A stretch of DNA of 64,000 nucleotides from Pachyseris speciosa (lineage: Eukaryota; Cnidaria; Anthozoa; Scleractinia; Pachyseridae): contig JAEMWC010001529.1 of the NCBI GenBank assembly GCA_016490735.1, positions 28,501 to 92,500 of the forward strand, read 5' to 3'. The notes below the pieces were generated by a model, which saw only the letters and a program-made list of their open reading frames with translations, had not been told where the DNA came from and ran no database searches. This document shows positions 4,217 to 64,000 of this stretch, in pieces; position 1 is the stretch's first letter, and each line of letters begins with the position of its first letter. A program made the position numbers and the translations under genes.

Positions 4217-4545
4217 ATTACTCAGGCTGCGAACGTCTCGAGCGTCGCCCGGGTCTAAGATTACCGACGGTTATTCTTTTTCGTCGTCGAGTATCATCCA
4301 CAAAGTGCACTTCCGGCGTTTCTGCGCAAGCGCTAACTATTTTTAACAACAGTGATGCCTGTTGTCACGTATCGGAAAATGTCGATTCACCTAGTGTCTT
4401 TTGAAGTCTGAACAAACAATATGTTAAGAGAAGTGTCTATGCGAATGATTGCAAGTTCAACGGCGAGAAGAAAGCTTTTAACATGAGTAAACTTAACTCC
4501 AGATGGACTGCCGTGTTTCCTCGTGTCTGCTTCAGTAGACTGCGA

Positions 4546-4652
4546 GTAGTCTCTAATTTTGGCGATGGATTGTGGGGCGGGCGAAAGACACGTGCGCGCG
4601 CGAAGTTGCGAGGAGACGCGACGCGAGGGGAGCGCCAAAAATTAGAGACTAC
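4546..4652. mobile_element. Small MITE nested in arm A
   Basis: A 107-bp element with near-perfect terminal inverted repeats: GTAGTCTCTAATTTTGGCG at 4546-4564 and its complement, with one extra A, at 4633-4652. The interior is GC-rich (GCGGGCG, GTGCGCGCGCG). The same element lies at 21161-21267 in arm B, so it inserted before the arms were copied. Confidence 0.85.
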
Positions 4653-5105
4653 AGACAAAGGGAGTTTGACCTTTCACGGCCGAGTGATTCGGAAGTATAA
4701 ATCTCATATCAACAGCAAGAACGATACTTGTTGTCACGTATCGGAAAACGTCGATTCGCCTTGTGTCTTTGAAGTCTGAACAACTAATATGTTAAGAGAA
4801 GTGTCTATACGAATGTTTGCAAGTTCAACAGCGAGAAGAAAGCTTTTAACATGACCAAAATTTAACTCCAGATGGATTGCCGCCGTGTTCCCCGTATCGG
4901 GTGTCTGGAGAACTCAGACCTAGAAAACTCAGAACTCAGACCTAGAAAACTCAGACCCCCCCCCCCCCCAAATCTGGAAAACTCGGACCCCATCAAAACT
5001 ATACAAATTTTCAAAGTCAAATAAACGTGGACAAAGTAAATTATCGCCGTTCAGTGCGCTGAAATGTTACACCCTCTATTTATCGCAGATAACAAACACT
5101 TCACG

Positions 5106-20158: not shown

Positions 20159-21594
20159 AACAAGAGGCTACAATTAACCTAAACTCGGGCTTGCAAAAAA
20201 CAGTACTGTATGCCTAACTTAGCGCTAAACAAAAGAATAGAGTTCTTACATCGGACGCATTGTGTTTAGCTTGTGTTGGAGTCTATTTCTTTAGACCCCT
20301 ATCAGCATATATTCCTCAGCTACAGCTACAGCTCAACAATTGAGAACAATAATTATAACACTTGTAAAAAATATTTCTAAAAGTACAAGAAAAAGAGAAA
20401 CAGAAAAAATAAAGCCCGTGATATATACCACTAAAAGACATCGACCCCGTGTTAGCTGCGTCACAGGCAGGAAAAAATGACCTTTAGGCCACAGAGGTTT
20501 ATCGTTTTGCAAGGTGATAAAAATAGTGTATTGATTCCAAAAAAAAACTAAGCACACTTGTTTTCGCTTCGATGAATAATTGTTTGAGAAAGGAAACGCT
20601 TATCGAAGGATGTAGGATTTTTTCGCATAAATGTGAATGGAGTCTCGGTGAAATGTGAGTAGAAAATTAATTAGCAGAGTGAAACTGTTTACAAATACGT
20701 CAATCCAGGGTCATTAGAAACACAAGAAAGGAACGTTTCTGGACAGTTTCAAGGACGCTGGTACATCTGTAAAAACTAATCGCTTATCATTCAAAAATTA
20801 AAGTCCAGAAATTGAGATATTGTGGGAAAATAGTAAATTAACTACCTGTCAAAGTCTCAGGGGTGTGTGATATCCCGTACTTGAGTTATTCAACAAAATG
20901 TACATCTCAATGGAGCGGATACGGGGAACACGGCAGTCCATCTGGAGTTAAATTTTGGTCATATTAAAAGCTTTCTTCTCGCTGTTGAACTTGCAAACAT
21001 TCGTATACACACTTCTCTTAACATATTAGTTGTTCAGACTTCAAAGACACAAGGCGAATCGACGTTTTCCGATACGTGACAACAAGTATCATTCTTGCTG
21101 TTGATATGAGATTTATACTCCCGAATCACTCGGCCGTGAAAGGTCAAACTCCCTTTGTCTGTAGTCTCTAATTTTTGGCGCTCCCCTCGCGTCGCGTCTC
21201 CTCGCAACTTCGCGCGCGCACGTGTCTTTCGCCCGCCCCACAATTCATCGCCAAAATTAGAGACTACTCGCAGTCTACTGAAGCAGACACGAGGAAACAC
21301 GGCAGTCCATCTGGAGTTAAGTTTACTAATGTTAAAAGCTTTCTTCTCGCCGTTGAACTTGCAATCATTCGCATAGACACTTCTCTTAACATATTGTTTG
21401 TTCAGACTTCAAAAGACACAAGGTGAATCGACATTTTCCGATACGTGACAACAGGCATCACTCTGTTAAAAATAGTTTGCGCTTGCGCAGAAACGCCGGA
21501 AGTGCACTTTGTGGATGATACTCGACGACGAAAAAGAAGAATCGTCGGTAATCTTAGACCCGGGCGACGCGCGAGACGCGCGCAGCCAGAGTAA
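20159..21594 (-). mobile_element. Long repeat element, arm B (inverted relative to arm A)
   Basis: Read on the minus strand this matches 4217-5887 at both ends. The outer edge is TTACTCTGGCTGCG plus GTCGCCCGGGTCTAAG. The inner edge is ACTGTTTTTTGCAAGCC, then GAGTTTAGG. The middle (about 20700-20925) is not shared. The internal tandem duplication seen in arm A is also present here. No transposase was found. Confidence 0.7.
21161..21267. mobile_element. Small MITE nested in arm B
   Basis: The partner of 4546-4652: GTAGTCTCTAATTTTTGGCG on the left and CGCCAAAATTAGAGACTAC on the right flank a GC-rich core (CGCGCGCGCACGTGTC). Confidence 0.8.
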
Positions 21595-25237: not shown

Positions 25238-25414
25238 ACTACTTAAGCAGTAGTGAAAATAAAGCCTGAAGAAAAATTCAGACTTTTACATCTCCCAGAT
25301 GGCTTGTTAGCTCAGTTGGTAGAGCACTGCACCGGTATTGCAGCGGTCGTGGGTTCGAATCTCGTACAAGCCTGAAATTTTTTCAGGCTTTATTTTCTCT
25401 ACTGCTTAAGTAGT
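25238..25414. repeat. Inverted repeat enclosing the tRNA-like sequence
   Basis: CACTACTTAAGCAGTAGTGA plus AAATAAAGCCTGAAGAAAAA on the left is complementary to TTTTTTCAGGCTTTATTTTC plus TACTGCTTAAGTAGTG on the right. The arms are about 45 bp. The LINE reading frame runs to its stop at the outer edge of the right arm. Confidence 0.85.
25301..25372 (+). repeat. tRNA-like sequence (anticodon position GGT)
   Basis: 72 nt fold as a cloverleaf: acceptor GGCTTGT/ACAAGCC (7 bp perfect), D arm with GCTCAGTTGGTAGAGC, anticodon stem CTGCA/TGCAG around loop CCGGTAT, and T arm with GGTTCGAAT. The A box and B box are intact. The loop has C rather than U before the anticodon, and GGT is not a normal cytosolic threonine anticodon in animals. 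It lies antisense within the LINE 3' region and is flanked by inverted repeats. I read it as tRNA-derived repeat rather than a working tRNA gene. A related copy is at 61357-61428. Confidence 0.7.
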
Positions 25415-49678: not shown

Positions 49679-49886
49679 GCAGGTATAAAGTACAGGTCAC
49701 ATTTCACAGGTCAACAGACAGGTCACCTGGCTATGGATAAATATAGAAACTCAACAGTGTCTCCTAGCCCTAATCACTATCTAAAATTTTCTACAGATTA
49801 AGGAGCAACTGTTGGCTTAGTTACCAATCAATAAAACAGTGAACTGTACCTGTGACCTGTGGAATGTGGGTACTTTATACCCACCT
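49679..49886. mobile_element. Palindromic MITE, GGTATAAAGTACAGGTCACA family, copy 3
   Basis: The most complete copy: the left GGTATAAAGTACAGGTCACA, then TTTCACAGGTC, faces the right GACCTGTGGAATGTGGGTAC, then TTTATACCC. It lies between near-identical direct repeats CCTAATGTTAG (left) and CCTAATGTCAG (right), a possible 9-11 bp target duplication such as Mutator-type transposases make. Confidence 0.8.
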
Positions 49887-49955
49887 AATGTCAGTGTGAC
49901 GTTGGTCTAGTTATCATGTCAGGGCTATTATGGTTTTAATTTTACAATTATTATA

Positions 49956-49980
49956 AAATCAAATCAAATCAAATCAAATG
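49956..49980 (-). repeat. (ATTTG)n tract, possible LINE tail
   Basis: Five CAAAT units on the plus strand. On the minus strand it reads as the same ATTTG repeat as the tail at 46960, so it could be another truncated LINE end. Confidence 0.5.
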
Positions 49981-50506
49981 AAGAATGATTTATTTCATAA
50001 ATCATTCACACTTATTATAAAATATGTAGAGACTTATAACAGTGCTTTCCAAAAACCTCCCAAAGTAGAAGGTGTGCAGTACAGTGTAGAACTGACCAAA
50101 TCACAGGTATAAATATTAACAGGTTATGAACGGGTCAGTACATTTCACTGACCCCCAGTCCATGGACTACCATGATGGACTACTGAAATGGACTACCTAT
50201 ATGGACTGCTAAATGGACTACCAAAAATGGACTACCCTTAATTACCTACCTTGAAAAAAAAAATTAGTAAAGTTTGGTTGTTTTCATCGATTGATCGTGA
50301 TCTCCACCATCTTGTTATTTTTTAAATGCTGCTGGTCAGCTTTTCTGCAGGCGCATTCACTCGTCGTGCATGATGGCTGACAGGCTGCAGCTGGAGTAAA
50401 AATTTGATTTATAATCTTCCAGGTGATTCCTTACCTGGCTGTCATGATGCTCAAAATGGTAAGTGACAGAAGAAGATACAACTCAAAAATAGATCACATG
50501 ACCAGG

Positions 50507-51040
50507 CCCAGGGGGGTACCCCCAGAAAAATTGGGTGGGGGTGCAGCCTGCTTCCCAAAAGCCTTACCTAATTTAAAGTGCACCTAACCCAAGAATAGTT
50601 ATTTTTTTCCCGCTATTATAATACTTTGTACATATTCCAAAAACATGTAGCATTTATTTTCAGCCTTGAGAGTTTTTATGGGGCTTACGATAAACTATGC
50701 ATCATTTGGTACACGACCAAGTCAGCTGGGGCGTGGGTCTATTCCCCAGTTGACTATTATGTATGCATGTTTACAAAGACGTAGCGCAATGATCAGTTTG
50801 TGACTTTAACTGGGGAAAAGACTCACGCTCCTTACTAGCTTGATCGTGTGACAGATGATGGCTAGATATCGTAACTTTTACAGCCTGTAAAAAGTCAAGA
50901 TTTGGCTAAAAAAAATTAAAGGCGCAATGTGTTTTGAATAGGTGCAAAGATTAATTTTAGCGAAAAAAAATTTTTCGGTGTTAGGGGCACTTAAAAACCA
51001 AAATATCTGTGATTTTCCCTACCCTATTTATAACAAACGA
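50507..51040 (+). mobile_element. CCCTATTTCAGACC-family MITE, copy 4, interrupted
   Basis: The left part (CCCAGGGGGGTACCCCCAGA, then AAAATTGGGTGGGGGTG) runs to about 50576. The next part (ACCAAAATATCTGTGATTTT, then CCCTACCCTATTTATAACA) resumes at about 50995. The 420-bp gap is another insertion. The right terminus is missing. Confidence 0.7.
50577..50990. mobile_element. MITE inserted into copy 4 (TTAA on both sides)
   Basis: GTGCACCTAACCCAAGAATA with TTTTTTTC on the left faces GAAAAAAAATTTTTCGGTGT, then TAGGGGCAC, on the right. TTAA occurs at 50573-76 and 50991-94. It has no coding capacity. Confidence 0.7.
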
Positions 51041-51334
51041 TTATAAATTCAAATTTTTACTGACCATCTAGCGTGTCAGCCATCACACGAGACGAATGAA
51101 TACGCCTTGCAGAACAGCTGACCAGCGGCATTTAAAAAATAACAAGATGGTGGAGATCACGATCAATCGATGAAAACAAGCAAACTTTACTAATTTTTTT
51201 TTTCAAGGTAGGTAATTAAGGGTAGTCCATTTTTGGTAGTCCATTTAGCAGTCCATATAGGTAGTCCATTTCGGTAGTCCATCACGGTAGTCCATGGACT
51301 GGGGGTCAGTGAAATGTACCGACCCGGTTATGAA

Positions 51335-51493
51335 CAAGTTATGTTCTTTTTTTTGGACCTCCTGTATGTAGATGGATCTTGGAGCTTGCCAATTTATGTG
51401 TAAATAATTATTAACTGTGTTCTGCAATACCTGCATCTTGAATAACATGCATGTATGTATGTGTGTATGTATGTATGTTACATGAGAGCTTAC
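51335..51493. other. Short spacer with (ATGT)n run
   Basis: 51447-51480 is a GTATGTATGTATG-like tetranucleotide run. No other feature was recognised. Confidence 0.5.
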
Positions 51494-51600
51494 CCAGAAC
51501 TCTCCTCTTGGTGCAGAGTGCATCATTTTTTATTTGCTCAACTTCTTGAATTTCTTTCAGTAATGTATTTGTTATCTGTTGGTTTGGGTCTTCATTCTCC
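51494..51600 (-). CDS. Probable internal exon, unrecognised minus-strand gene
   Basis: The acceptor CTTTTTATAG precedes 107 bases that end at CTGG|GTAAGC, a strong donor. One leading base, 35 codons and one trailing base fit exactly. It reads ENEDPNQQITNTLLKEIQEV and ends CTKRRVL, with the heptad-like spacing of a short coiled coil. The trailing G completes the first codon of exon 49154-49247. No start exon was identified upstream. Confidence 0.5.
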
Positions 51601-51682
51601 CTATAAAAAGCACAACATGTCCCATAAAATTAAATCCACTTACATAAATGTATAAAAAGGTCTTCTTTAGAAACTTTCTACT

Positions 51683-51945
51683 TACTTATAAGTAGGATTA
51701 AAGCACTGACTTAAACATGCAACAACACTGCGCATAATTCCTGCTCCAACCTGGATGGAATGATAGTCCATCGCAAGGCAGCCAACGAGAACACTATTTT
51801 TGTCAGCTGGTTTACCTTCTGGTTCAGTGGTGCCCTGGGTGGAGTAAACTTTATTGCATTTACCCTTGGCTAACATCAAACAACTGACTCTCCAATTAAT
51901 TTAAGATCAATGCTCTAACCATGAGACTACTGCACCTCCACATGA
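51683..51945 (-). mobile_element. tRNA-derived SINE-like sequence
   Basis: On the minus strand it begins GGTGCAGTAGTCTCATGGTT plus AGAGCATTGATC, a tRNA A-box-like head. It continues with GGGTAAATGCAATAAAGTTT and CTTGCGATGGACTATCATTC, then CATCCAGG, a phrase typical of SINE bodies. The B box is not clear. It ends near ACTTATAAGTAAG. Confidence 0.5.
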
Positions 51946-52102
51946 ATCAGTGGTGCACTTAAATTAAACTTTTGTTGTCAATAGAATTTGAGACAAAACA
52001 AAAATGAAAACAATATTTTTACGAAAAATGAAGACAAAATTTGACCAGTGAATCAGTTAACATTCTTTACAGTTAGTGGTTGAAATCACACTGGATACCC
52101 CT
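51946..52102. other. Spacer
   Basis: No feature recognised. Confidence 0.3.
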
Positions 52103-52947
52103 GTAATATTATGGTTGGCGGAATGGTGCAAAATTCAAGGAATCAAAATCGCTTCCAACATCAACAACCAATCTGAAGTTCAACATTTTCTTTCTATATC
52201 AACAATAAAATCCGTCCAACTTCAACCGCTAATGCAATAACCAACACTTAAAACACACCTAATTCAGCAACAAAATTAAGTCAACATCAACAACAATTCC
52301 TCTTTTCAACATCAACAGCGAATCACCTCAAAACCAATATCGAAAAGCATCTCAACTTCAACAACAAAATACTACGTTCAACAATTTGGGGACGAGCGAC
52401 TGGTTATGGTCGGGGGAGGCTGGGACAGAAAAAATTCCTACTAGGACATGCTGGGAAATAGAAGTAAAAGGAAAGAAAAATGGCAGATGAAGAGGAGAGG
52501 ATGAGGCGATGTATCCGAGAGGAATTAGAACTAAATCTTGTCTCCAGGACAAGGAATTTAATACGTTAGGCGGCTATGAGTCTGTAAATGACTTAAATAA
52601 TGCTTTTACGAACCAAACTCCAGAAATGAGCTCTTTAGGGTGATCTTCTTGAGCTTTTCAATGTTGGTTTTGAGGTGATTCGCTGTTGATGTTGAAAAGA
52701 TGAATTGTTGTTGATGTTGACTTCATTTCGTTGCCAAATTAGGCATGTTTTAAGTGTTGGTTATTGCATTAGCCGTTGAAGTTGGACGGATTTTATTGTT
52801 GGATATAGAAAATGTTGAACTTCAGATTGGTTGTTGATGTTGGAAGTGATTTTGTGCTGAACTTCAGATTGGTTGATGATGTTGGAAGCGATTTTGATTC
52901 CTTGAATTTTGCACCATTCTGCCTACCATAATTATAATATTACCATG
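52103..52947. mobile_element. Foldback element with CAACATCAACAAC-rich arms
   Basis: The left arm (52103-52365; GGTGCAAAATTCAAGGAATC and ATCGCTTCCAACATCAACAA) is complementary to the right arm (52640-52947; TTGTTGATGTTGGAAGTGAT and GATTCCTTGAATTTTGCACC). The outer edges are GTAATATTATGGTTGGCGGA and its complement. The right arm contains an extra tandem copy of GAACTTCAGATTGGTTG plus GATGTTGGAAG. The centre carries a short ORF (52480-52571). Confidence 0.8.
52480..52571 (+). CDS. Short ORF inside the foldback element, possible captured first exon
   Basis: ATG at 52480 opens a ~29-codon frame starting MADEEERMRRCIREELELNL and ending SRTRNLIR, then a stop. The start context is good (AAAATGG). 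The charged, helix-like composition is typical of real protein. CGTTAGG at the end could be a donor. It is the only non-repeat-like sequence between the arms, so it may be a captured host exon, or a chance ORF. Confidence 0.35.
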
Positions 52948-53339
52948 GTAAACGGAACCACAACTGCTTATGTAATAAGTGTTTACCACAACTTGTTGTT
53001 TATATTTATCATGGTAAATATACCAGAAGTGTGACCCCAAATTTTGAGTTATACCATTAGATAATTAGCTCTGACATACTGTTACGGTTGTAAGTTTCCC
53101 TAACAGAAAAAACAAGTGACTTGGCCCCAGATACATTATTTTGTATGATAAGGTAGATATTTAAGAAATATCAGGTTTTTATGTGTATGACAAAATTATT
53201 TTGCAGTTAATTCACGACTTTCAGAAAGATTTGCTGTGAAATCTTCAACATTCCATTCAACATTGGAAGTTATAAAGAGGAAATTGAATGTTCATTTCAA
53301 ATTTGTAAATGCAGGTGATGTGAGACGAGATTGGCAGAC
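52948..53339. other. No clear feature
   Basis: Unremarkable AT-rich sequence. Confidence 0.3.
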
Positions 53340-53790
53340 TGGCAGCACTATGAGCCACAGTTTTATGAAAATGCCATGAATTTTCTGTGAATACCCCATG
53401 AAAGCCATTTAACGGCCCATGAAAACTGCAAAATGTAATTTCATGTGTTCTCTTTTGGCCATGAATTTTCCATGAAAATGTGGCATTTTATTTCATGACC
53501 CATGAATTTGATAAGGAGATACATTCATGGGCCATGAATTTGCCATGAAACTCGTCACATTATATATTTCATGGCCCATGGAAGTCATGTGTTTGGACTT
53601 TCGTGGGCCATGAAAATGGCTGGTGGTGTGGTCTTCGATTTCATGGGCCATAAATAATCCATGAAACTCGACACAATGTCTTTAATGACCCATGAAAACA
53701 TACTTTTCATGGCATATAAAAAGATTTGAGTTGTTTACATTACTGATTTCATGGGTCATGAATTTTCCATGATTCTAGGGCTTAAAAGGT
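53340..53790. repeat. Cluster of TTCATGGGCCATGAA-like palindromes
   Basis: Variants of CCATGAA / TTCATGG occur at least fifteen times in about 440 bp, often joined as perfect or near-perfect palindromes (TTCATGGGCCATGAATTTGC at 53525, TTTCATGGCCCATGGAA at 53569, TTTCATGGGTCATGAATTTT at 53747). Spacing is irregular, so it is not a simple tandem array. ATGAATTTTCCATGA and CCATGAAACTCG-ACA occur at both sides, hinting at a larger fold. No coding. Confidence 0.85.
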
Positions 53791-55081
53791 GGGAATCATG
53801 AAAATTCACCACACATGCCTTGAATAAATTATAGTTGATACAGACTTTCATTTTAAAAATAGACTTTTGAAATTTTATTTATTAAAATTGAAAGGCAATC
53901 AAGAAAGGACAAATAGATGTCACTACCTTGCACCAAAATTCAAGCCAACAGATCATACATGTAGCCCATAATAAAGGTGTTAGACTTGTAAACTTGTACC
54001 AGAACAATACTGGAGCAGTACTGGGATGACAATAAAAGTAGAATAAAAATGGAACAATGTGCCGTAACGAGTGACCAAAAGAATAATATAATTTAAAACG
54101 AAAGAAACATGGCGACCGGATTAAGTGTAGACCACACTAAGGGGCATAGCTAGGATTTTTCAAGGAGGGGCCCACTGTGTGTCACACCTTGGGTACTTCC
54201 CAGATTGTCATGTCAACATCCATGCTGTGTTTTACCGAAAGTGACATTAATTTTGTTCGGATGGGCAAAAAGGCTAGAGGGAGGGACAAGCCAGCCATTT
54301 TCATGAGTTGTTTAGACTGAAGGAAACTTCTCATCATAAAACGTGATCAGCTGAAATATCTTATCACAGTTCCATTCAAATAAAGATGATTCTTCATAAT
54401 CAAAATCCACGGCCTGATTTTTCAGCACTCATTTATAGGGGTAATATATTACTGGTAGCCCAGTAGTTTCCATTGTGGCCCACAATTGATTATTCCTAGG
54501 AATTAGGATAAAAACAAAGGCTTGGAATTAATTAGAATATCTGGGAATGTTCACTGATCCAGTTGGGAATAACTTGGAATTACAAGGAATTCCCAAAAAT
54601 TCTAAGACTAAACAAAAATCGCATTTGGAATTGCTGGAAATGTCTTGGAATCAAGCGGTCAGACATCAAAATGCATATTTGAGCAATTTGTGGCCAATCA
54701 ATATCAAGTTAAAGTTCCACCACTTTAAAAAAAAAAAAAAGACTGCAAAGTTTTGTGATTCTTTAAGACCAAGACTTAAATTCTTTCAAGGAAACAAATT
54801 TGATTAAGCCTAAATTAAGTGCTACTATAAAAACAACATAGTACTAAAAAGGCAAAAAGACAATTACATAAAATAAAATACAATCCTAAAGTCATACATT
54901 TACTCAGTGATTTATCGGAAAAGCTCATGAAATTTACAAAGTCCTTTGAAATGAAACGAACGTGAGTTAGCGATGGATTTTTCTCACCTCCACGAACTCG
55001 TTCGTCTCTTCGCTTTCTCGTCAACGTTCGGTAACAAACATCTAAAGCATGTTTTATACTCAACTGAAGATGAATCTCTTC
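53791..55081. other. No gene called; one transposon-like end
   Basis: GGGGCATAGCTAGGATTTTT near 54141 looks like one end of a hAT-type element without a partner. A 15-base A run lies near 54727-54741. Minus-strand sequence near 54985-55063 (ALDVCYRTLTRKRRDERVRG before a GTGAGA donor) may be a decayed exon. Confidence 0.3.
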
Positions 55082-55390
55082 CTAAAGTGTGTTTTCGTCA
55101 AAATCTTCGCCAGAAATTGGATTCATATCCTCGAAATCTGAATGACCGATGCAAACGAAGCGGGCACTTGCATTGAACAGAGCAGCAAACAGAGCATGTT
55201 TCGCTGTTATGTTATTAGAAGGGATAGACGAGAAGGCCCTCCAACGGCGGTGAGACTGGGACAAAGTTTTACGAGCGACGAAAACATCTTCGCAAAGTCG
55301 TCGGCCAAAATAAAATGGCGGAGCGCTTTTGGAGTAGTGTGGAGCGGCCAGCTTAGGCTGGGTACTTTTGGAGCAGTTTTTTCTGGTCAC
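55082..55390 (-). CDS. Unrecognised 102-codon ORF, doubtful
   Basis: ATG at 55390. The last third (FEDMNPISGEDFDENTL) is acidic and protein-like, and the frame stays open past the stop codon to a possible donor near 54985. The opposite strand here contains AAAATGGCGGAGCG, a YY1-like promoter motif, so the area might be an old bidirectional promoter. No domain is recognised. It could equally be a chance ORF. Confidence 0.25.
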   Translation of the reverse strand: MTRKNCSKSTQPKLAAPHYSKSAPPFYFGRRLCEDVFVARKTLSQSHRRWRAFSSIPSNNITAKHALFAALFNASARFVCIGHSDFEDMNPISGEDFDENTL

Positions 55391-55585
55391 TTTTGATCAT
55401 ATAGCATAAGATCCCGATGCAGGTAAGCAGAACGTTATACAATGTAAAACAAAAAGTCTTTAGGAAAACATATAAATGCATTTTAATTCAATCGGGGGAC
55501 CTTTGGTCTATGTCTTGTTTACATAGATCACAGGTCCCTTTCTCCGAAGTGCAGTTAGTGGTTGCTGGCAATAAAATAGTAATCT

Positions 55586-55758
55586 CAGGAGCGGATTTAG
55601 GGGGGAGGGCCGACGGGGCCGCGTTTTTTCCTGTATTTTTTTTTTAAGTTTCTGTAACCAGTCGACTTTCAAGTGCATCAGGCAGCGGAGGGGGAGGGGT
55701 GCGCTCTCGCCGCAATTTATTCGGGCCCCTCTTTCTGGATTTTCTGGATCTGCCCCTG
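55586..55758. mobile_element. hAT-like MITE
   Basis: A 173-bp element with ends CAGGAGCGGATTTAGGGGGG and TTTCTGGATCTGCCCCTG. CAGGGGCGGATCCAG is a very common hAT terminus. Interior C/G runs and GTCGACTTTC are not informative. The flanks share AATCT, an imperfect target duplication. Confidence 0.7.
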
Positions 55759-55855
55759 AATCTAATCAAATTTCTGATACTAGTCTATCCGTCACAGAAA
55801 AAAAAATGGTTTGTAAGAAATTAGTTTAATTAAACCAGTGCTTCTTTCATTTGGT

Positions 55856-55956
55856 GAAAATGTATTAAGCTTGTGGGAAGTGGCTTGGAGTGACAAGAAT
55901 ATGGTATTGGTATTCTTGTCACTCCAAGCTACTTCCACCAGGCTTATTACATTTTC
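55856..55956. repeat. 101-bp hairpin, precursor-like
   Basis: The left arm GAAAATGTATTAAGCTTGTG, then GGAAGTGGCTTGGAGTGACA, then AGAATA, pairs with the right arm TATTCTTGTCACTCCAAGCT, then ACTTCCACCAGGCTTATTAC, then ATTTTC. The loop is TGGTATTGG. Pairing is continuous over about 45 bp with a few mismatches. The length and shape resemble a microRNA precursor or a very small MITE. Expression cannot be judged. Confidence 0.85.
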
Positions 55957-57614
55957 ATTGTTTGTTTTGTTTCTGTGGGTACTTGAGGCTGGGTATCAGC
56001 TAAGCCATGATGAAGAGGCCTAACAGAGCTTTAGCATTTTTTAAATATTTACCCATAACAGCAGTTCGACATCAGTATGGCAAGGCCAGTTTATGTGCTA
56101 TAATTATTTTGGCAGTCCAGTGAGATGAGATATACCTGATAAGTGGTAGCATTTATGTAAATTTGCCTACTTGCTGTCAGGCTGAGAAAAATTATTGTGG
56201 CACATAAACCAGCCTTTGAGCTAATAATCTTTATATGTGTCCCTCTAGGTGTGAAGGATGCAACTGGTGTATGCTCAATTACTAACTGGAAATCCAACCA
56301 TGCAGCAAGTTATCCTATGTATATTGCTCAGCCAGTGTAGAAACAGTAATTATTACCATAATTTGCCACTGACGGTTGATGCTTTAACATTAGTAGGAAT
56401 ATTTACTGTCATATGTGAGTTGTTTGGTGTGCAATAGACAATCAAAGAGGTCAAGATTTCTTCTACCACGTAAGCGATCGAGAGTTGTCTTTGTTGTTTA
56501 TGGTAGGAGAACCAATCAAATTTCAGACTGTCCATGTTTACTATGACACCAGTATCGATTGGATGGATTTTGCGTGACACAAAAAGATAAGATGAAGACG
56601 GTTTGAGAGAGATTCTAAACGTTTATTACAGTGATTGTAGTTTTCATTTACAGACAAAAAGATAACGCTTCAGCTTTAAATAAAATCGGAACGTTTGGGG
56701 AGGAATCCTATCGAGGAATGTCGTTTTGAATATACCTGTCCGACGGGAACCTTGACGCAGACGGGCGAGCGCGCACGGGCTCTCGCGTCTGGGCTCTCGC
56801 GTCCATTGTTTTTAAAACACTCAGTTTGAGGTAAACACATCTGAGGCTTCTTTATTAATTCAGAGCTCAGTTCCAGTTTTTGTTTTACAATAAAATTATT
56901 TGTCTAATATACTAGTAGATTAAAGATAACAAGCGTTTTTAATGTGAAAGCGACGCAACGAGTGAGCGCGAACCAATTTTATATTTGATATGCTTTCCAA
57001 ATTCGGCACTCTTTGTTGTGTGGTTAAAGAATGCGAGGGGAAATGATTAGAATTACAGCTATTGTTCATTCTGGGATGATAAACAAAAGGAAATTGTCAC
57101 ACATTTCCTCAAAGGGCCTACCAATTTCTATAGTTGTCTTACATTCCCGAGTGACATCCGACGTGAACACTGATGAATCGGCAATGAGTCTAAACAATAG
57201 CATGAATATATGAATACTTAACGACCCACGAAACGTGGGTACACACTTAAATCGACGTGAAGTTGTCATGTAGTAAATAAACTCTTGACTAATGTTTGGG
57301 TTTTCAAAAATGTTTCCCCTGATCAGTCAAAGGGCCTTTTTTTTATGATATTCTTTTATTAAACTATCACAATTACTACACAATACACAACAATATAGAA
57401 ACTAAAAGAAAAAAAACTAAGTACAAAGCAATGGCCGTTATTAGAACCAAAAAATAAGAGTAAAAGTACAGATATAGGTCTTGTTAAAAAGATACAAAGA
57501 AGAACAATATTACAATAAATAGAATCCTCTATTGTTACGTATTTACAGTGCTGATAGCAGGTCAAAGGGCCTTCCTAGGGCCACCCCTTCCTCCTCTCTC
57601 TCCCGAGGCACGTG
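55957..57614. other. No clear feature
   Basis: No coding exon or repeat pair recognised. A GC-richer patch at 56745-56815 (GACGCAGACGGGCGAGCGCG) could be a promoter, but no transcript start was identified. Confidence 0.3.
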
Positions 57615-58685: not shown

Positions 58686-60816
58686 TCAATTGACTAAATG
58701 TAGGTTTGGTTTTCTAGCATGACTGGCTCTACATTTATCACATCTCCACTTTCGGTTGGTACTGATTGCATACATGGGAATGTTCACACAGGTTGGGTGA
58801 TACCATCCACAACACTGAGAGCATTGAACATATTCCTTCCTGTCATTTGGCATTCTCCATACACAGAAAATTGGCACTGTTGTTTCTGGTGGTTAAATGG
58901 TAAGGTACCCGGTGCATTGTTCTTGGGAACGGAACCATTTCTTGTGAATCTAAGCAGCTGACGTAATGCTCACGGAGCTTGACTTGGTCATATGATTGTG
59001 TTGCCGGGTCTATGCCATGGCAGACATCTGTTGAAAAGGCCAGAGCAAACAAGCCACAGTCTTTATCGTTTGCTTGCCTCTGAACTTTCTCATTGAAAAA
59101 TGTGACAGATTTCCTAGTGTGCATGAACATTCGGCAGGAGTGAGCGATGGCAATTGAGCTGACTTTAGTGTATAGACTGTCATAAATCTTTACCGTCCCA
59201 GGCCTTGAAGAAAAAGTACTTAGACAGACCCAGTGGGAACCTGTGTTTAAGATTTGTTCAAATTCACTTTGGGCAGGGGTGACCAATTCACCAGAAATAG
59301 AAGGATTATGCAGTCCATCTACTAGTGGAAATTTTGATTTCAGAAGTAGTTGTCCAGCATGAATTTCAGAGTCACATAGCCATGTTGTTTTCTTTAAAAT
59401 GTTGGCTCTGGCATCTTGGTAAAAGATGAAGTGGGCGTCAGGGTCTTCAGGGTCTTCAATATCTAACCAAATGTTGGTATCTGGTGAGTTGTCATCTATT
59501 ATTATGGGTAACTGCTTTGAGACAGGAGGAATGTTCTCTTTGTGTTCTTGTTTGGCTTTCTCACTGGTGAAAATATCAGGGATAGATCTTTGCTCTTTTT
59601 GGTTCAGTATGTCAATTTCTACAGTTCTAATTTCTTGCTTTGAAATGTTGATAATGGAAGCACTCTTTTCATGGTCACCCTTGGTTTCTTCATTAATGGA
59701 CACTTCCTTTTCCATTATAGGCAGTTGGATACCTGCAGGAGAAATATTCTCTTCGTAATCAAGCTCATCCCTTTCAACTGTGGAACTTTTTAGCTCAAGA
59801 GGACTTTTCTCTTCTTGACTGGTCATCATTTCTTGAGTGATGAGGGGAATCTGCTCGGTGTCTCTCTTGTTTTCCTCTTTAGTGGATATGTCTTCTCCAA
59901 GGATTTCACTCTCTACCTTCTCAACTCTTGCCCTCTTAGAATGAACGGCTGCATTAAGAGGATCGATATGCCACCCGCGTTTAAGGTTATTTGCGGCCTT
60001 TCCAACTCTGCCTGTATATTTATTTTTTCTAGTAGCTAGAGGTAGGCGTTTGAATGCTGATGTGGCAGAATGTTGCTTTGGTTTTAAAGGCTCAGTCGGA
60101 GAATGTTTTTTCTTAGGGGCTTCTTGTTCCAGGATAAGGCCGTTAGATGCTCTAGGTGCAGAGCTTTCCATTTTCTGCAGGCAGACTTGTAGGCATTCTT
60201 TGACATCATTTAGGGTATTTAAATCATCCACGATGTAGCTGAGAGACTTCATCCGGTTCATAAGATCGCGACATGTAGATGCCACCGTCCTCTTTACTGC
60301 CGTTGGGAGAGGAATGTTTTGGAATTCAATGTTTAAATCTGCATTTCTGTCAGGTATGTCTGTGCAATCTTCTGGTGATTCTTGTTGGGACAGTTCTTCT
60401 GGGGACTCCTTCTTGCAAGCAGGAGAAACAATTTCTGTATCCAGGGTAAAAAATGGGGAATTTCTGTATTTCTCAGGAAGGCTATCAAATCCCCAATCGG
60501 GCTGGTGCCTAAAAACAGCAAACATGTGCTTGCACGGTAGATGGGTTCTTTGCCATTCTTCACAAGCACATGATGGAACCCCATATCTACACCAACGGAG
60601 ACTTCATACCACTGGTCCAGCGTGGCTGATTGGCTATGTACCCGAAACTGCCCTTCGCCTGATTGGATGACATTGTGATCTAGGATGGCTTGTGCTAATG
60701 ATATTTTGTCCATACAGTGTGAAATGATATGGCGTGGACGATCTTGGAGGTAAAGGGGCACCCTGTCATCGTAACGTTTGTAGTGGCTGGACAGCCTTGT
60801 GTTTGCTTCTATATAC
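58686..60816 (-). CDS. Exon 5: SWIM finger, acidic linker, Ulp1-type protease, PHD finger
   Basis: The exon opens after TCGTTGCAG; its first base completes a lysine codon, then YIEANTRLSSHYKRYDDRVP. The first frame ends around WYEVSVGVDMG. After a one-base shift at 60579-82 the next frame gives the SWIM motif CAC-X8-CKH (60570-60526). A 560-codon frame (60525-58843) then holds a charged linker with repeated EEN/KEE-rich segments and a C48 peptidase with His431 (SHWVCL), Asp449 (YDS), Gln484 and Cys490 (KDCGLFALAF). All four active-site residues are present. Ulp1-family enzymes cleave SUMO or related ubiquitin-like proteins. A last shift near 58873 leads to a PHD finger (CVWRMPNDRKEYVQC, GWYHPTC, WRCDKC) and a stop at 58686. 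The CVW replaces the CxC ligand pair usual in such fingers. Confidence 0.8.
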
Positions 60817-61071
60817 CTGCAACGATTTTGACACCGGTATAAGCTTGTTGTAGTGACAAAGTAACAGTTTCTTGTGCTGAAATAGAAATTCAACGCACAT
60901 AAGCAGTAATAATTAAACAGGTAATGATAAAACGCAATATGTGTAATGCCATTTCCATTGAGACCCCATTTCTCTATCTGCAGTCACACATGGAAGCAAT
61001 CAAACGACATCATTTTCCAAATACGAAACATTAGGACTTGAAATGAGCTAAGATTTCATTCTGCTACTTAC
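60817..61071 (-). other. Intron 4
   Basis: 255 bp. The donor AAA|GTAAGT and acceptor TCGTTGCAG|G leave a lysine codon split 2+1. No nested element was recognised. Confidence 0.75.
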
Positions 61072-61247
61072 TTTGTGTACTTGTCCGGAAGGAATTGTTC
61101 AACCAAAATGGTCACCATAGAACTTAGGTTTACACTCTTGTTACCTTCCAGATATTCATACTTGAACGATTTATTTTGCCTTTCGACTCCATTGGTGGTA
61201 CAAACTGAAGACAAAAGGCGATCTTTCTTGTATGCCCAAACCCACCT
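61072..61247 (-). CDS. Exon 4: C-terminal part of the MULE transposase domain
   Basis: 176 bp from TTTCTTTTCAG|AGG to ACAAA|GTAAGT, open throughout. It reads RWVWAYKKDRLLSSVCTTNG, then VERQNKSFKYEYLEG, then MVTILVEQFLPDKYTK. The TNGVERQNK segment corresponds to the region around the third acidic residue of MULE transposases, where the glutamate of NNGVE-type motifs is the likely catalytic residue. The exon is intact and joins exon 5 in phase. Confidence 0.85.
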
Positions 61248-61284
61248 CTGAAAAGAAACGGAACAGTAGTATTAGTCAAAAGGC

Positions 61285-61367
61285 AAATGAAGAATGATCC
61301 TCGCAGTTGTGAACGCAATTTATGCAATTGCGAAAAGAAGCCTGAAAAAAATTCAGGACTTCAACGG

Positions 61368-61401
<34 letters not shown>

Positions 61402-61402
61402 T

Positions 61403-61443
<41 letters not shown>

Positions 61444-61513
61444 AGGTCAATTATGGGTTCATATGTTCCCGTGAAAGAAATGAATGTCAATGATATATGA
61501 AATAAATCATACA
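61285..61513 (-). mobile_element. tRNA-like SINE in intron 3
   Basis: On the plus strand the element starts GAATGATCCTCGCAGTTGTG, runs through AAGAAGCCTGAAAAAAATTC, then an antisense tRNA-like region, and ends ATATATGAAATAAATCATAC, then ATATATCATTCAC. The hairpin near the tRNA-like end and the CATTCAC terminus are shared with the 3' region of the LINE at 25159-26229, suggesting a common tail and mobilisation. Confidence 0.7.
61357..61428 (-). repeat. tRNA-like sequence (anticodon position GGT)
   Basis: 72 nt, minus strand: acceptor GGCTTCA/TGAAGTC, D arm GCTCAGTTGGTTAGAGC, anticodon stem TCGCA/CGCGA with loop CCGGTAT, and T arm GGTTCAAAC. The last anticodon-stem pair is mismatched and U33 is replaced by C. 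It is best read as the tRNA-derived part of the surrounding SINE, not a working tRNA gene. Confidence 0.7.
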
Positions 61514-61624
61514 TATATCATTCACAGTAGTATTAGTATTGCCTTTGCAACACGTGTTTGTTTACCAGGCTGTAATACTGTAACAATGATCCAGTTCACG
61601 AGACTATCAGATCGACCCGAATAC

Positions 61625-61871
61625 CTTGTGCTCTCGTATCCACGTGTTATGAAACCAGTCTCGAGCACCTTTTAACTCTGACCGACCCCACACTTCCCAC
61701 TCTTCAAGAGCTCCTACTGCCTCTTTGTACTCTTTCTCTGTTGATGCGTGAGCAATTCGTCGAAAACGACAAAGGATATCCGTCTTGAAAACAGTAGCTC
61801 CATTTGCTCCTTTGGAAAGCCACCGCTCCCAGGCTTGCTCCTGTGAAAATCGCAGATGTACACACTACAAT
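61625..61871 (-). CDS. Exon 3: central MULE transposase region, one-base deletion
   Basis: 247 bp between TTTTCTTTCAG and AAG|GTATTC. Frame one gives CSVYICDFHR. Frame two, from the GG at 61840-41, gives EQAWERWLSKGANGATVFKT, then LCRFRRIAHASTEKEY, then WFHNTWIREHK. CDFHREQAWERW is a continuous conserved phrase in this protein family, so one G appears to be missing (AGGGAG would restore the phase). The exon length agrees: 247 is one base short of a multiple that fits both neighbours. The rest is open to the donor. Confidence 0.75.
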
Positions 61872-62029
61872 CTGAAAGAAAACACAAAAGTGATCAAAAG
61901 AGTCGTTCTAGGTAAGCCAAGTGGGGTGTACTCGTGCCTGACTAATATATTGAAAGTTGATAAACGTTTCATTTATACTACCCCCTTTGTTCTGTTAAGT
62001 TTATCTATTTATGCGTGAATTCAAAAAGT

Positions 62030-62212
62030 TTATTGTTCTTTTTGCTGTTGTTTTAACTTTTTAAATGTCGACTCTGTTGTACCGTTCGTGCAACTCATTT
62101 GATTAAAGTCGCCACTGCAACAAATTATAGCCATCATAAAAGCGTCATTGAAGCAATTACGTCCGACAGCATGCTCTTTCACCAACAGTTTCAAGGGAGA
62201 TACAAGTATCAG
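62030..62212 (-). other. Open frame of about 60 codons, unrecognised
   Basis: Minus strand, no ATG near its left limit. It includes LLVKEHAVGRNCFNDAFMMA, IICCSGDFNQMSC and TESTFKKLKQQQKEQ, then a stop. The composition is protein-like and it ends just at the SINE border. It may be a displaced exon or part of another gene. Confidence 0.3.
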
Positions 62213-62340
62213 ATGAGAATGAATATATGAAAATCATATATTTGAACTGCGGATTAAAGAATGAATATGTGAATGAGTGGTTTGGGGCGCTGGACTTCAA
62301 TGAGATCACCCCGGGTTCAAATCCCGCTAAAACCACTAGA
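62213..62340 (+). mobile_element. tRNA-derived SINE fragment
   Basis: The lead AATGAATATATGAAAATCAT, then ATATTTGAACTGCGGATTAA, is nearly identical to 25162-25205. It is followed by a 60-nt tRNA-like segment (62277-62336) with acceptor GTGGTTT/AAACCAC and B box GGTTCAAATCC but lacking most of the D arm. It sits between exons 2 and 3 of the MULE gene, where coding sequence is missing. Confidence 0.65.
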
Positions 62341-62372
62341 TGGCTATAGCAGTAGGTATCTTGTCAAACTAC

Positions 62373-63059
62373 CTGGAAATAACCGCTCCACAGCAAGAAG
62401 TGTGGTGACCATTCAGAATTCCATTCCGCTATTACTTTCAGGGCGTTTTCTATTTCGTAACTGGCCTCACTTTGCGATATAAAACTGCCAACCACCTGAT
62501 AGTCAACATTTGTCTTGACCACCAGGAAAAACAACGGTAACGCATATTTCGTCGTACGATATGTGACATCGAGCAAACTTAAATCGTTCCCATAACGATT
62601 CAAAAGTCTGCGCTGCCATTTTGTCTGGTGTACGAACAAAAGACCCTCCTTTCCTCCGGAAACTTACACAACTTCTTCCTCGGCATCGTCGTCGCCATCG
62701 TTTTCACTCCATTCACCACTTGTGATATCTGCTTTAACATGAGCATAAGGGCGAAAGAAAAACAAATCATCTGGGCAATCTTTTCTCCAACCCTCTACTT
62801 TTTTCTGCAAATTTTCTTGGCCTACCTTCGAACACCTCTGTTTTACGACAGACGCGTAAATGGCACTGCGTATATCTGTCTTACTGGGGTAAAATCTCCT
62901 GTTACATCGTGAAGGCAAAGGCCCTTCCTTGAAAAGCACCTTTTCAACGTAGTGTCGAAGGTGACGCCGCATTTCGTTAACTCCACGAACGCCTTCATCA
63001 ACAAGATCAATTATCTGATCCCTTAACCTCGAGTCCATTCTTTGAAGGAAACCAGCAAT
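62373..63059 (-). CDS. Exon 2: CARF-like region and N-terminal MULE transposase, with an in-frame stop
   Basis: 687 bp (229 codons) from TTTTCCATACAG|ATT to CAG|GTAGTT, phase 0 at both ends. It begins IAGFLQRMDSRLRDQIIDLV and continues GVNEMRRHLRHYVEKVLFKE, RFYPSKTDIRSAIYASVV, then VEGWRKDCPDDLFFFRPY, wording typical of CARF/ALS2CR8-type proteins. After an acidic run DDDAEEEVV comes TAA (62664-66). The same frame then goes on as LLFVHQTKWQRRLLNRYGND, LLDVTYRTTKYALPLFFLVV, the start of the MULE domain with its first aspartate. It ends EWNSEWSPHFLLWSGYFQ. The stop may be a true null mutation. A splice around it looks unlikely because no short GT-AG intron fits. Confidence 0.75.
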
Positions 63060-63605
63060 CTGTATGGAAAACAGAATACGTTTATCAAGAGTAGTAGTGT
63101 ATTGCTGATTTTCACATGACGTCATAGCGTCCATGTTGGTGGCCTATGGTAATGCAAACATTTTCTTTGGCATCGGTTAAAAAACTTCGCCGCTTATCAC
63201 CAGAGTGAAAACAAAGGATAGTAGCACAGTATGTAGCTTACAACGAGCGGACGTGCGTTGGCGTATTGCACAAGGCAATAAAAAGGACAGTTTCGGTAAA
63301 CTTGTGAAGCACATACTAAATATTTGTTGGCTTTTAAATTTAAACCGTTCGCGACTTCGCAAAGACTTCCTATAATGCAGAGGCATTGCTTTTCTTCTAC
63401 GAAGTGGTCCTCCATTATCGTCAAGGCTCGCAACAAATTTAGTTTTAATAGCATTCCTAAGCGAAGTTCGGACTTTCGTGAGTTATGTGGGACGATCAGT
63501 TAGAAAGACAGCACACTCACAAACATTCTCCAGACTTTTAATTTATAAGGCACTGAGTTTGAAGTTTCCTTGAAAATATTGATCGTTTCCTTATTGAAAA
63601 CCTAC
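63060..63605 (-). other. Intron 1
   Basis: 546 bp, GAG|GTAGGT to TCCATACAG. The open frames at 63177-63454 do not look like this gene and lack splice support. Confidence 0.6.
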
Positions 63606-63779
63606 CTCTCCAGTCGTGTGTTGCGCATGGTCACCGGGGCAAGGAAAGTGTATGTATACTCGCTTTTCAACTTCGCCAGCCGTATCTTCACTTAAGGCTT
63701 TCCGCAGTTTTTTAGATGCAGTCTTTCGTCGTTTGGAAGTGTCCACGTCTATCTGAAATTTTGACAATTTTTTATCCAT
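63606..63779 (-). CDS. Exon 1: N-terminus of the MULE-SWIM-Ulp1 gene
   Basis: ATG at 63777-79 opens 58 codons ending at GAG|GTAGGT. It reads MDKKLSKFQIDVDTSKRRKT, then EKRVYIHFPCPGDHAQHTTG. The KRRK cluster could act in nuclear import. The HFP...DHAQH stretch joins exon 2 (IAGFLQRMDSRL) in phase and in the order seen in CARF-like proteins. An upstream exon cannot be excluded, but the ATG is the first in frame here. Confidence 0.65.
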
Positions 63780-64000
63780 TTTATTCCTTTTTGTATGAAT
63801 TCCTAAGGTTATTTTTCCCTCCCAAGCTGGTTGCTGTTCTGTTGCTCTTTCACTCTTACCTTAAATTGTGGAAATCGTATGACTTCTCGCATTATGACTT
63901 GCGCGGTACATCCAAATTTCTTAGTTGGCTGATGTATTTCCCTTGGCCTTTTGTTTCCATATGAATGGTCACCACCCTGATGTGGGATAAGGGAGTTGTT
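63780..64000. other. 5' flank of the gene
   Basis: Upstream of the probable start codon. No TATA box or promoter motif stands out in the 220 bases visible. Confidence 0.3.

What the first reader, a model, noticed from the sequence alone, without database searches (positions are those of the whole stretch)
58686..63779. Five-domain fusion: CARF-like, MULE transposase, SWIM, Ulp1 protease and PHD finger in one gene
Exon boundaries and codon phase support one minus-strand gene combining a transposase core, a SWIM finger, a complete SUMO-type protease active site and a PHD chromatin reader. Seen: the motifs, splice sites and phases. Known: MULEs carrying Ulp1-like genes exist in plants. Inferred: a cnidarian counterpart or domesticated descendant that links DNA binding, deSUMOylation and histone reading.
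Basis: partly seen in the sequence, partly recalled or inferred. Interest (0 to 1): 0.75.

Follow-up and report, generated by a model that had tools for sequence, protein, structure and literature searches.

The report
Dead copy of five-domain Mutator transposon
The sequence is a broken copy of a jumping gene, probably in a coral-like animal, whose transposase carries extra protein-cutting and histone-binding parts; this kind of transposon was already known in outline, so the copy is mostly ordinary.

Summary
The five domains are real and lie in order on the minus strand: CARF/ALS2CR8-like, MULE/RNase H transposase, SWIM, Ulp1-type C48 protease, PHD. But this is a decayed copy. It has an in-frame TAA, a 31-bp deletion that removes the second catalytic Asp of the transposase, three further frame changes, and Trp for the second PHD cysteine. 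So exon phase does not support one open gene here. The fusion itself is right: 24 of 58 C48-exon loci found in this genome have a CARF-MULE exon upstream, same strand, within 15 kb, none in another order; 3 of 18 relatives scanned carry all five domains in one protein. The gene sits in a transposon with ~100-bp terminal inverted repeats; 5 of 8 copies with both ends found have 9-bp target duplications, as MULEs do. The nearest copies share flanking DNA with the window or each other, so several look like segmental duplications. Mutator transposases with Ulp1 and PHD were in print in 2010. New member of a known kind; no sign of domestication.

The parts
55207..55313 (.). 3' terminal inverted repeat of the element (outermost bases degenerate)
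   Evidence: matches the repeat found at both ends of sister copies
63860..64000 (-). exon with CARF/ALS2CR8-like piece, running off the window at its 5' side; donor GTAAGA follows
   Evidence: PF15299 E 8.6e-7; junction position
63606..63752 (-). exon with CARF/ALS2CR8-like piece (49 codons)
   Evidence: PF15299 E 1.6e-5, 25.4 bits, below the cut-off of 28.9; junctions
62373..63059 (-). exon with CARF C-terminal part and first half of the MULE/RNase H core; first catalytic Asp codon 62568-62570
   Evidence: PF15299 2.5e-10 and PF21056 2.1e-8
62664..62666 (-). in-frame TAA between the CARF and MULE parts
   Evidence: 3 of 7 other loci read at this site have it
62373..62411 (-). site of a 31-bp deletion that removes the second catalytic Asp and changes frame; seen in the window copy only
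   Evidence: 9 of 9 other loci read at this site have the 31 bases
61625..61871 (-). exon with CxxH motif of the transposase; frame change after CDFHR at about 61840
61072..61247 (-). exon with the catalytic Glu (codon 61182-61184)
   Evidence: residue invariant in the 10 sequences of alignment A1
61276..61524 (-). tRNA-Thr-like (SINE-type) insertion in the intron, absent from the C248/C181/C120-type copies
58686..60816 (-). last exon (acceptor tentative) with SWIM, linker, C48 protease and PHD, broken by two frame changes (about 60575 and 58890)
60523..60576 (-). SWIM zinc finger CxCx9CxH
   Evidence: PF04434 E 4.3e-5
58960..59520 (-). Ulp1-type C48 protease; His 59233-59235, Asp 59179-59181, Gln 59080-59082, Cys 59056-59058
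   Evidence: PF02902 1.6e-5; 28 of 28 rows keep all four residues
58728..58868 (-). PHD finger, out of frame with the protease, second Cys ligand is Trp
   Evidence: PF00628 3.5e-8

Best explanation
The window holds a decayed copy of a low-copy Mutator-like (MULE) DNA transposon of an animal, probably an anthozoan. Shown: sister copies have ~100-bp terminal inverted repeats and 9-bp target duplications, and the family encodes a gene with a CARF-like N-terminal domain, a DDE RNase H core, a SWIM finger, a C48 protease and a PHD finger. Inferred mechanism: the CARF-like and SWIM parts bind the element's inverted repeats, the DDE core cuts and pastes, the C48 domain removes SUMO (or a related modifier) from host or transposase proteins at the site, and the PHD finger docks the complex on H3K4-methylated, open chromatin. 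The window copy itself can do none of this in full: it lacks the second catalytic Asp and is out of frame at several places.
For: Domains by Pfam. Three of 18 relatives scanned (P0020, Ciona P0074, Lytechinus P0075; several picked because their listed domains promised it) have all five domains above curated cut-offs in one protein. 24 of 58 C48-exon loci in the genome have a CARF-MULE exon upstream, same strand, within 15 kb, and 0 pairs within 15 kb are in another order or strand. 17 loci, the window's included, carry a stretch at least 80% identical to the window's last-exon ORF, and introns and downstream DNA are conserved too. Inverted repeats: 24 matches in the genome, 16 of them in 8 pairs. 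9-bp target duplications in 5 of 8 pairs: C120, C181, C446, C1382, C460. A sister copy (C248) has SWIM-C48-PHD in one 734-aa open frame, and two (C181, C120) have the exon from CARF to the transposase core open. The C48 model of a relative resembles SENP5/SENP1/Ulp1; the PHD is closest to PHF2 and BPTF. Nearest named relative is from the coral Oculina (64% identity).
Against: The 5' end of the window copy cannot be seen (C1529:92501-97500 reads N), so its own target duplication is untested. 3 of 8 pairs show no duplication. 34 of 58 C48-exon loci have no CARF-MULE exon within 15 kb; some may be other genes with a C48 domain. None of the copies that I read looked intact from end to end, though I did not check this systematically. 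C48 substrate and PHD ligand are not shown; the window-type PHD has Asn where the BPTF-type cage (recalled) has Tyr.
Confidence: 0.93

Rival explanations
1. A domesticated host gene descended from such a MULE, which links DNA binding, deSUMOylation and histone reading for the host.
For: C48 active-site residues are intact in the window ORF; C48+PHD evolves slowly between two families of this genome (dN 0.30 with dS saturated, 258 codons), though this fits selection on an active transposon as well.
Against: Multicopy with inverted repeats and 9-bp target duplications; the window copy has a stop, a deletion and frame changes.
Confidence: 0.03
2. Two adjacent genes (a CARF-MULE gene and a Ulp1-PHD gene) that the reader joined.
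For: In the window the parts are in different frames, and the best coral gene model (P0001, Oculina) stops before the protease. 34 of 58 C48-exon loci have no CARF-MULE exon near.
Against: All five domains in one protein in P0020, P0074, P0075; SWIM, C48 and PHD share one open frame in C248 and one protein in most of the 27 relatives aligned; consistent linkage.
Confidence: 0.04
3. The C-terminal protease still works from the window copy as a stand-alone Ulp1 fragment made from the 586-aa open frame.
For: 586-aa open frame with intact H, D, Q, C and SWIM ligands; dN/dS of window versus C248 is 0.50.
Against: Expression was not tested (no RNA data here); only 23 synonymous and 43 non-synonymous differences, so the ratio is weak, and it mixes in selection from before the copy died.
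Confidence: 0.05

Closest known systems
Mutator transposons with Ulp1 (and PHD) in Hydra and lancelet, cited in Bao et al. 2010 (PMC2836005; discussion read whole, other parts as passages)
   Same: Mutator transposase with Ulp1 domain in a cnidarian; the figure legend aligns Ulp1 and PHD of Ginger1 and Mutator transposases
   Different: The discussion and the passages seen do not mention a CARF-like or SWIM part; the Repbase entries were not available for comparison
Ulp1-bearing plant MULEs (Hoen 2006, van Leeuwen 2007, seen only as references in PMC2836005; the name Kaonashi is recalled)
   Same: MULE carrying a Ulp1-like protease
   Different: CARF and PHD parts not known to me there (recalled, not tested); sequence relation not tested
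Ginger1-9_HM transposon of Hydra
   Same: C-terminal Ulp1 and PHD on a transposase (table in PMC2836005)
   Different: Its core is a Gypsy-integrase-like DDE; the pieces here match MULE/ZSWIM models instead
Vertebrate CaRF / ALS2CR8 transcription factor (recalled)
   Same: PF15299 domain
   Different: As recalled it lacks transposase, protease and PHD; it may be a domesticated remnant of such elements, which I did not test

Membership tests
Mutator-like (MULE) DNA transposon | MULE/RNase H transposase core | tested here: met
   PF21056 above cut-off in the window piece, PF10551 below; both above cut-off in relatives such as P0001, P0020, P0074
Mutator-like (MULE) DNA transposon | Complete DDE residues in this copy | tested here: not met
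   second Asp lost in a 31-bp deletion; 9 of 9 other loci read there keep the stretch
Mutator-like (MULE) DNA transposon | Terminal inverted repeats | tested here: met
   24 matches, 8 pairs in the genome; the window holds the 3' one
Mutator-like (MULE) DNA transposon | 8-11 bp target duplication | tested here: met
   9 bp in 5 of 8 pairs of the family; the window copy itself not testable, its 5' side reads N
Ulp1/C48 protease | His-Asp-Gln-Cys and SENP-like fold | tested here: met
   28 of 28 rows, window included; model of relative P0006 matches SENP5 9gnx E 1.9e-5
deSUMOylase | Cleaves SUMO rather than another modifier | not testable with these tools
   sequence is nearest SENP8/Den1 at E 0.16, fold nearest SENP5/SENP1
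PHD finger | Cys4-His-Cys3 ligands in this copy | tested here: not met
   second Cys is Trp and the finger is out of frame; of the 27 relatives aligned all keep the first Cys and 24 to 26 each further ligand
H3K4me3-reading PHD | Aromatic cage | tested here: inconclusive
   of 27 relatives Trp in 26, the Y23-like Tyr in 26, the Y17-like position Tyr in 16 and Asn in 10; cage positions recalled from BPTF
Domesticated transposase gene | Intact, no transposon ends, not multicopy | tested here: not met

The most novel reading that the evidence does not exclude
An animal-wide clade of MULEs (seen here from cnidarians to echinoderms and tunicates) moves by means of a single transposase that carries its own SUMO protease and histone reader, so that it clears SUMO-based silencing and aims for active promoters; vertebrate CaRF would be a remnant of its DNA-binding part.
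Probability: 0.3. Interest if true: 0.65.

Novelty: new member of a known kind. Interest (0 to 1): 0.36.

Why it matters
A transposase that brings its own deSUMOylase and histone reader would be a compact way to escape silencing and choose insertion sites, and the sister copies with target duplications give defined end sequences for tests. For the window itself the lesson is modest: one dead copy of a widespread but little described transposon clade.

Tried and rejected
Domestication and two-gene readings were tested and rejected (see rivals). A scan of viral contigs with P0020 found no relative. PADLOC gave nothing for P0020. Shared frame changes first suggested that broken copies were moved in trans. 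Flanks argue for segmental duplication of at least some: the window shares 3' flanking DNA with C393:513k (window 49879-55206, but for one insertion), C1388 (52071-55206) and C1714 (53706-55206, as far as held), and C1714, C878 and C393:176k share DNA beyond the 5' repeat. Against a simple picture, C393:513k has a different 5' flank (shared for about 17 bases only), and the C393:167k-176k copy parts from the window inside the element at 55326. The eight literature searches listed no paper whose title, abstract start or (in four papers: PMC2836005, PMC6446971, PMC12220107, PMC10027918) passages read here join CARF, MULE, SWIM, Ulp1 and PHD; this covers open-licence PubMed Central only, I saw listings for the rest, and Repbase Reports could not be read.
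Full report
What is there. The CARF-like part is PF15299 (ALS2CR8) in three exons, one of them below the curated cut-off; the transposase core matches PF21056 above its cut-off and PF10551 MULE only weakly (E 0.029); SWIM, Peptidase_C48 and PHD are above their cut-offs. Splice-like junctions lie where relatives need them. The gene is not complete in the window: its 5' side passes 64000.

The copy is broken. Compared with relatives and with other copies of the same genome it has: a TAA in frame at 62664-62666 between the CARF and MULE parts (3 of 7 other loci read at this site have the TAA too; two more, C1714 and C878, have one TAA in that exon whose place I did not read); a 31-bp deletion further on in that exon, which removes the second catalytic Asp (9 of 9 other loci read there have the bases); a frame change at the CxxH motif, one before SWIM and one between C48 and PHD; and Trp for the second PHD cysteine. 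The CxxH, SWIM and PHD-side changes lie in the closest loci as well: C393 (two loci), C1388 and C878, which has further changes. Other copies (C248, C181, C1407, C446 and more) lack one or more of these breaks but have others: C248 has lost its 5' part, C120 changes frame before SWIM and C181 after the protease. The 586-aa frame with SWIM and C48 is open in the window, with all four active-site residues.

One gene, not two. P0020 (unnamed source), P0074 (Ciona) and P0075 (Lytechinus) carry all five domains above cut-offs in a single protein, out of 18 relatives that I scanned, several of them picked for their listed domains. Of the 102 proteins, the precomputed Pfam columns show C48 in 20, PHD in 10 and both in 5; some are partial gene models. 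In this genome the two halves are linked: 80 matches of the last-exon ORF fall into 58 loci and 69 matches of the CARF-MULE exon into 49; 24 of the 58 have a CARF-MULE exon upstream on the same strand within 15 kb, 34 have none, and no pair within 15 kb is in another order or strand. The match lists are lower bounds by the tool's own note. The C248 copy has SWIM, C48 and PHD in one 734-aa open frame.

A transposon. 17 loci, the window's included, have a stretch at least 80% identical to the window ORF, and non-coding DNA is conserved along with it. An inverted repeat of about 100 bp bounds the copies; the genome search gave 24 matches, of which 16 form 8 pairs. Five of the 8 pairs have identical 9-bp flanks (C120, C181, C446, C1382, C460; in C446 and C460 one end of the repeat is altered or cut short), and three (C248, C1714, C393:509-523k) do not. 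Nine-base target duplications with long inverted repeats are what MULEs make (TSD lengths of 8-11 bp in the table of PMC6446971, passages). The window holds the 3' repeat at about 55207-55313; the other end lies in DNA that reads N. The window copy, C393:513k, C1388 and C1714 share 1.5 to 5 kb of DNA beyond the 3' repeat, and C1714, C878 and C393:176k share DNA beyond the 5' repeat, so several of the nearest copies look like duplicated segments of one old insertion; C393:513k differs on its 5' side and C393:167k on its 3' side, so rearrangement has followed.

How it may work. The C48 residues H, D, Q and C are invariant in 28 of 28 rows, and the zinc ligands of SWIM and PHD are kept in 24 to 28 of them (the window row lacks the PHD). 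An AlphaFold model of relative P0006 (mean pLDDT 58, C48 part mostly about 80-95) matches SENP5, SENP1 and Ulp1; by sequence the window ORF meets SENP8 at E 0.16 only. The PHD is nearest PHF2 and BPTF, and most relatives keep aromatic residues at cage-like positions (positions recalled). C48 plus PHD are conserved between two families of the genome (dN 0.30, dS saturated). I infer that both parts serve transposition: the protease against SUMO-dependent control, the PHD for choosing H3K4-methylated sites. None of this is shown.

What is known. Bao et al. 2010 (PMC2836005) already state that Mutator transposons of Hydra and lancelet encode Ulp1, and a figure legend aligns Ulp1 and PHD of Ginger1 and Mutator transposases (discussion read whole, the rest as passages). 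The MULE survey PMC6446971 (passages) has no occurrence of CARF, ALS2CR8 or protease in its main text, and its two mentions of PHD are for Rehavkus. The survey of transposon-derived transcription factors PMC10027918 has none of CARF, ALS2CR8 or Ulp1. No paper listed or read in my eight searches joins all five domains; that is a weak negative. I file the finding as a new member of a known kind.

Noticed in passing
window 61276-61524: tRNA-Thr-like SINE-type insertion in an intron of the element, shared with the nearest copies and absent from the C248/C181/C120-type copies; a second tRNA-Thr-like sequence is at 25301-25373.
   Followed up: partly
window 50126-51331 and 52108-52932: Two foldback-type long inverted repeats (arms of 224 nt at 96% and 149 nt at 93%) just beyond the element.
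   Followed up: no
L024 (C424:122390-126211): A related family with an 831-aa open stretch: SWIM (below cut-off), a long SPSSAVSN-type repeat, C48 and PHD (just below cut-off).
   Followed up: partly
window 4400-4862 and 20951-21413: Pairs of 95-nt repeats, 368 nt apart in both places and in opposite orientation.
   Followed up: no
window 49879-56000: Shared at 98% with C393:502501-509954 apart from an insertion at 52071; a segmental duplication or assembly duplicate.
   Followed up: partly
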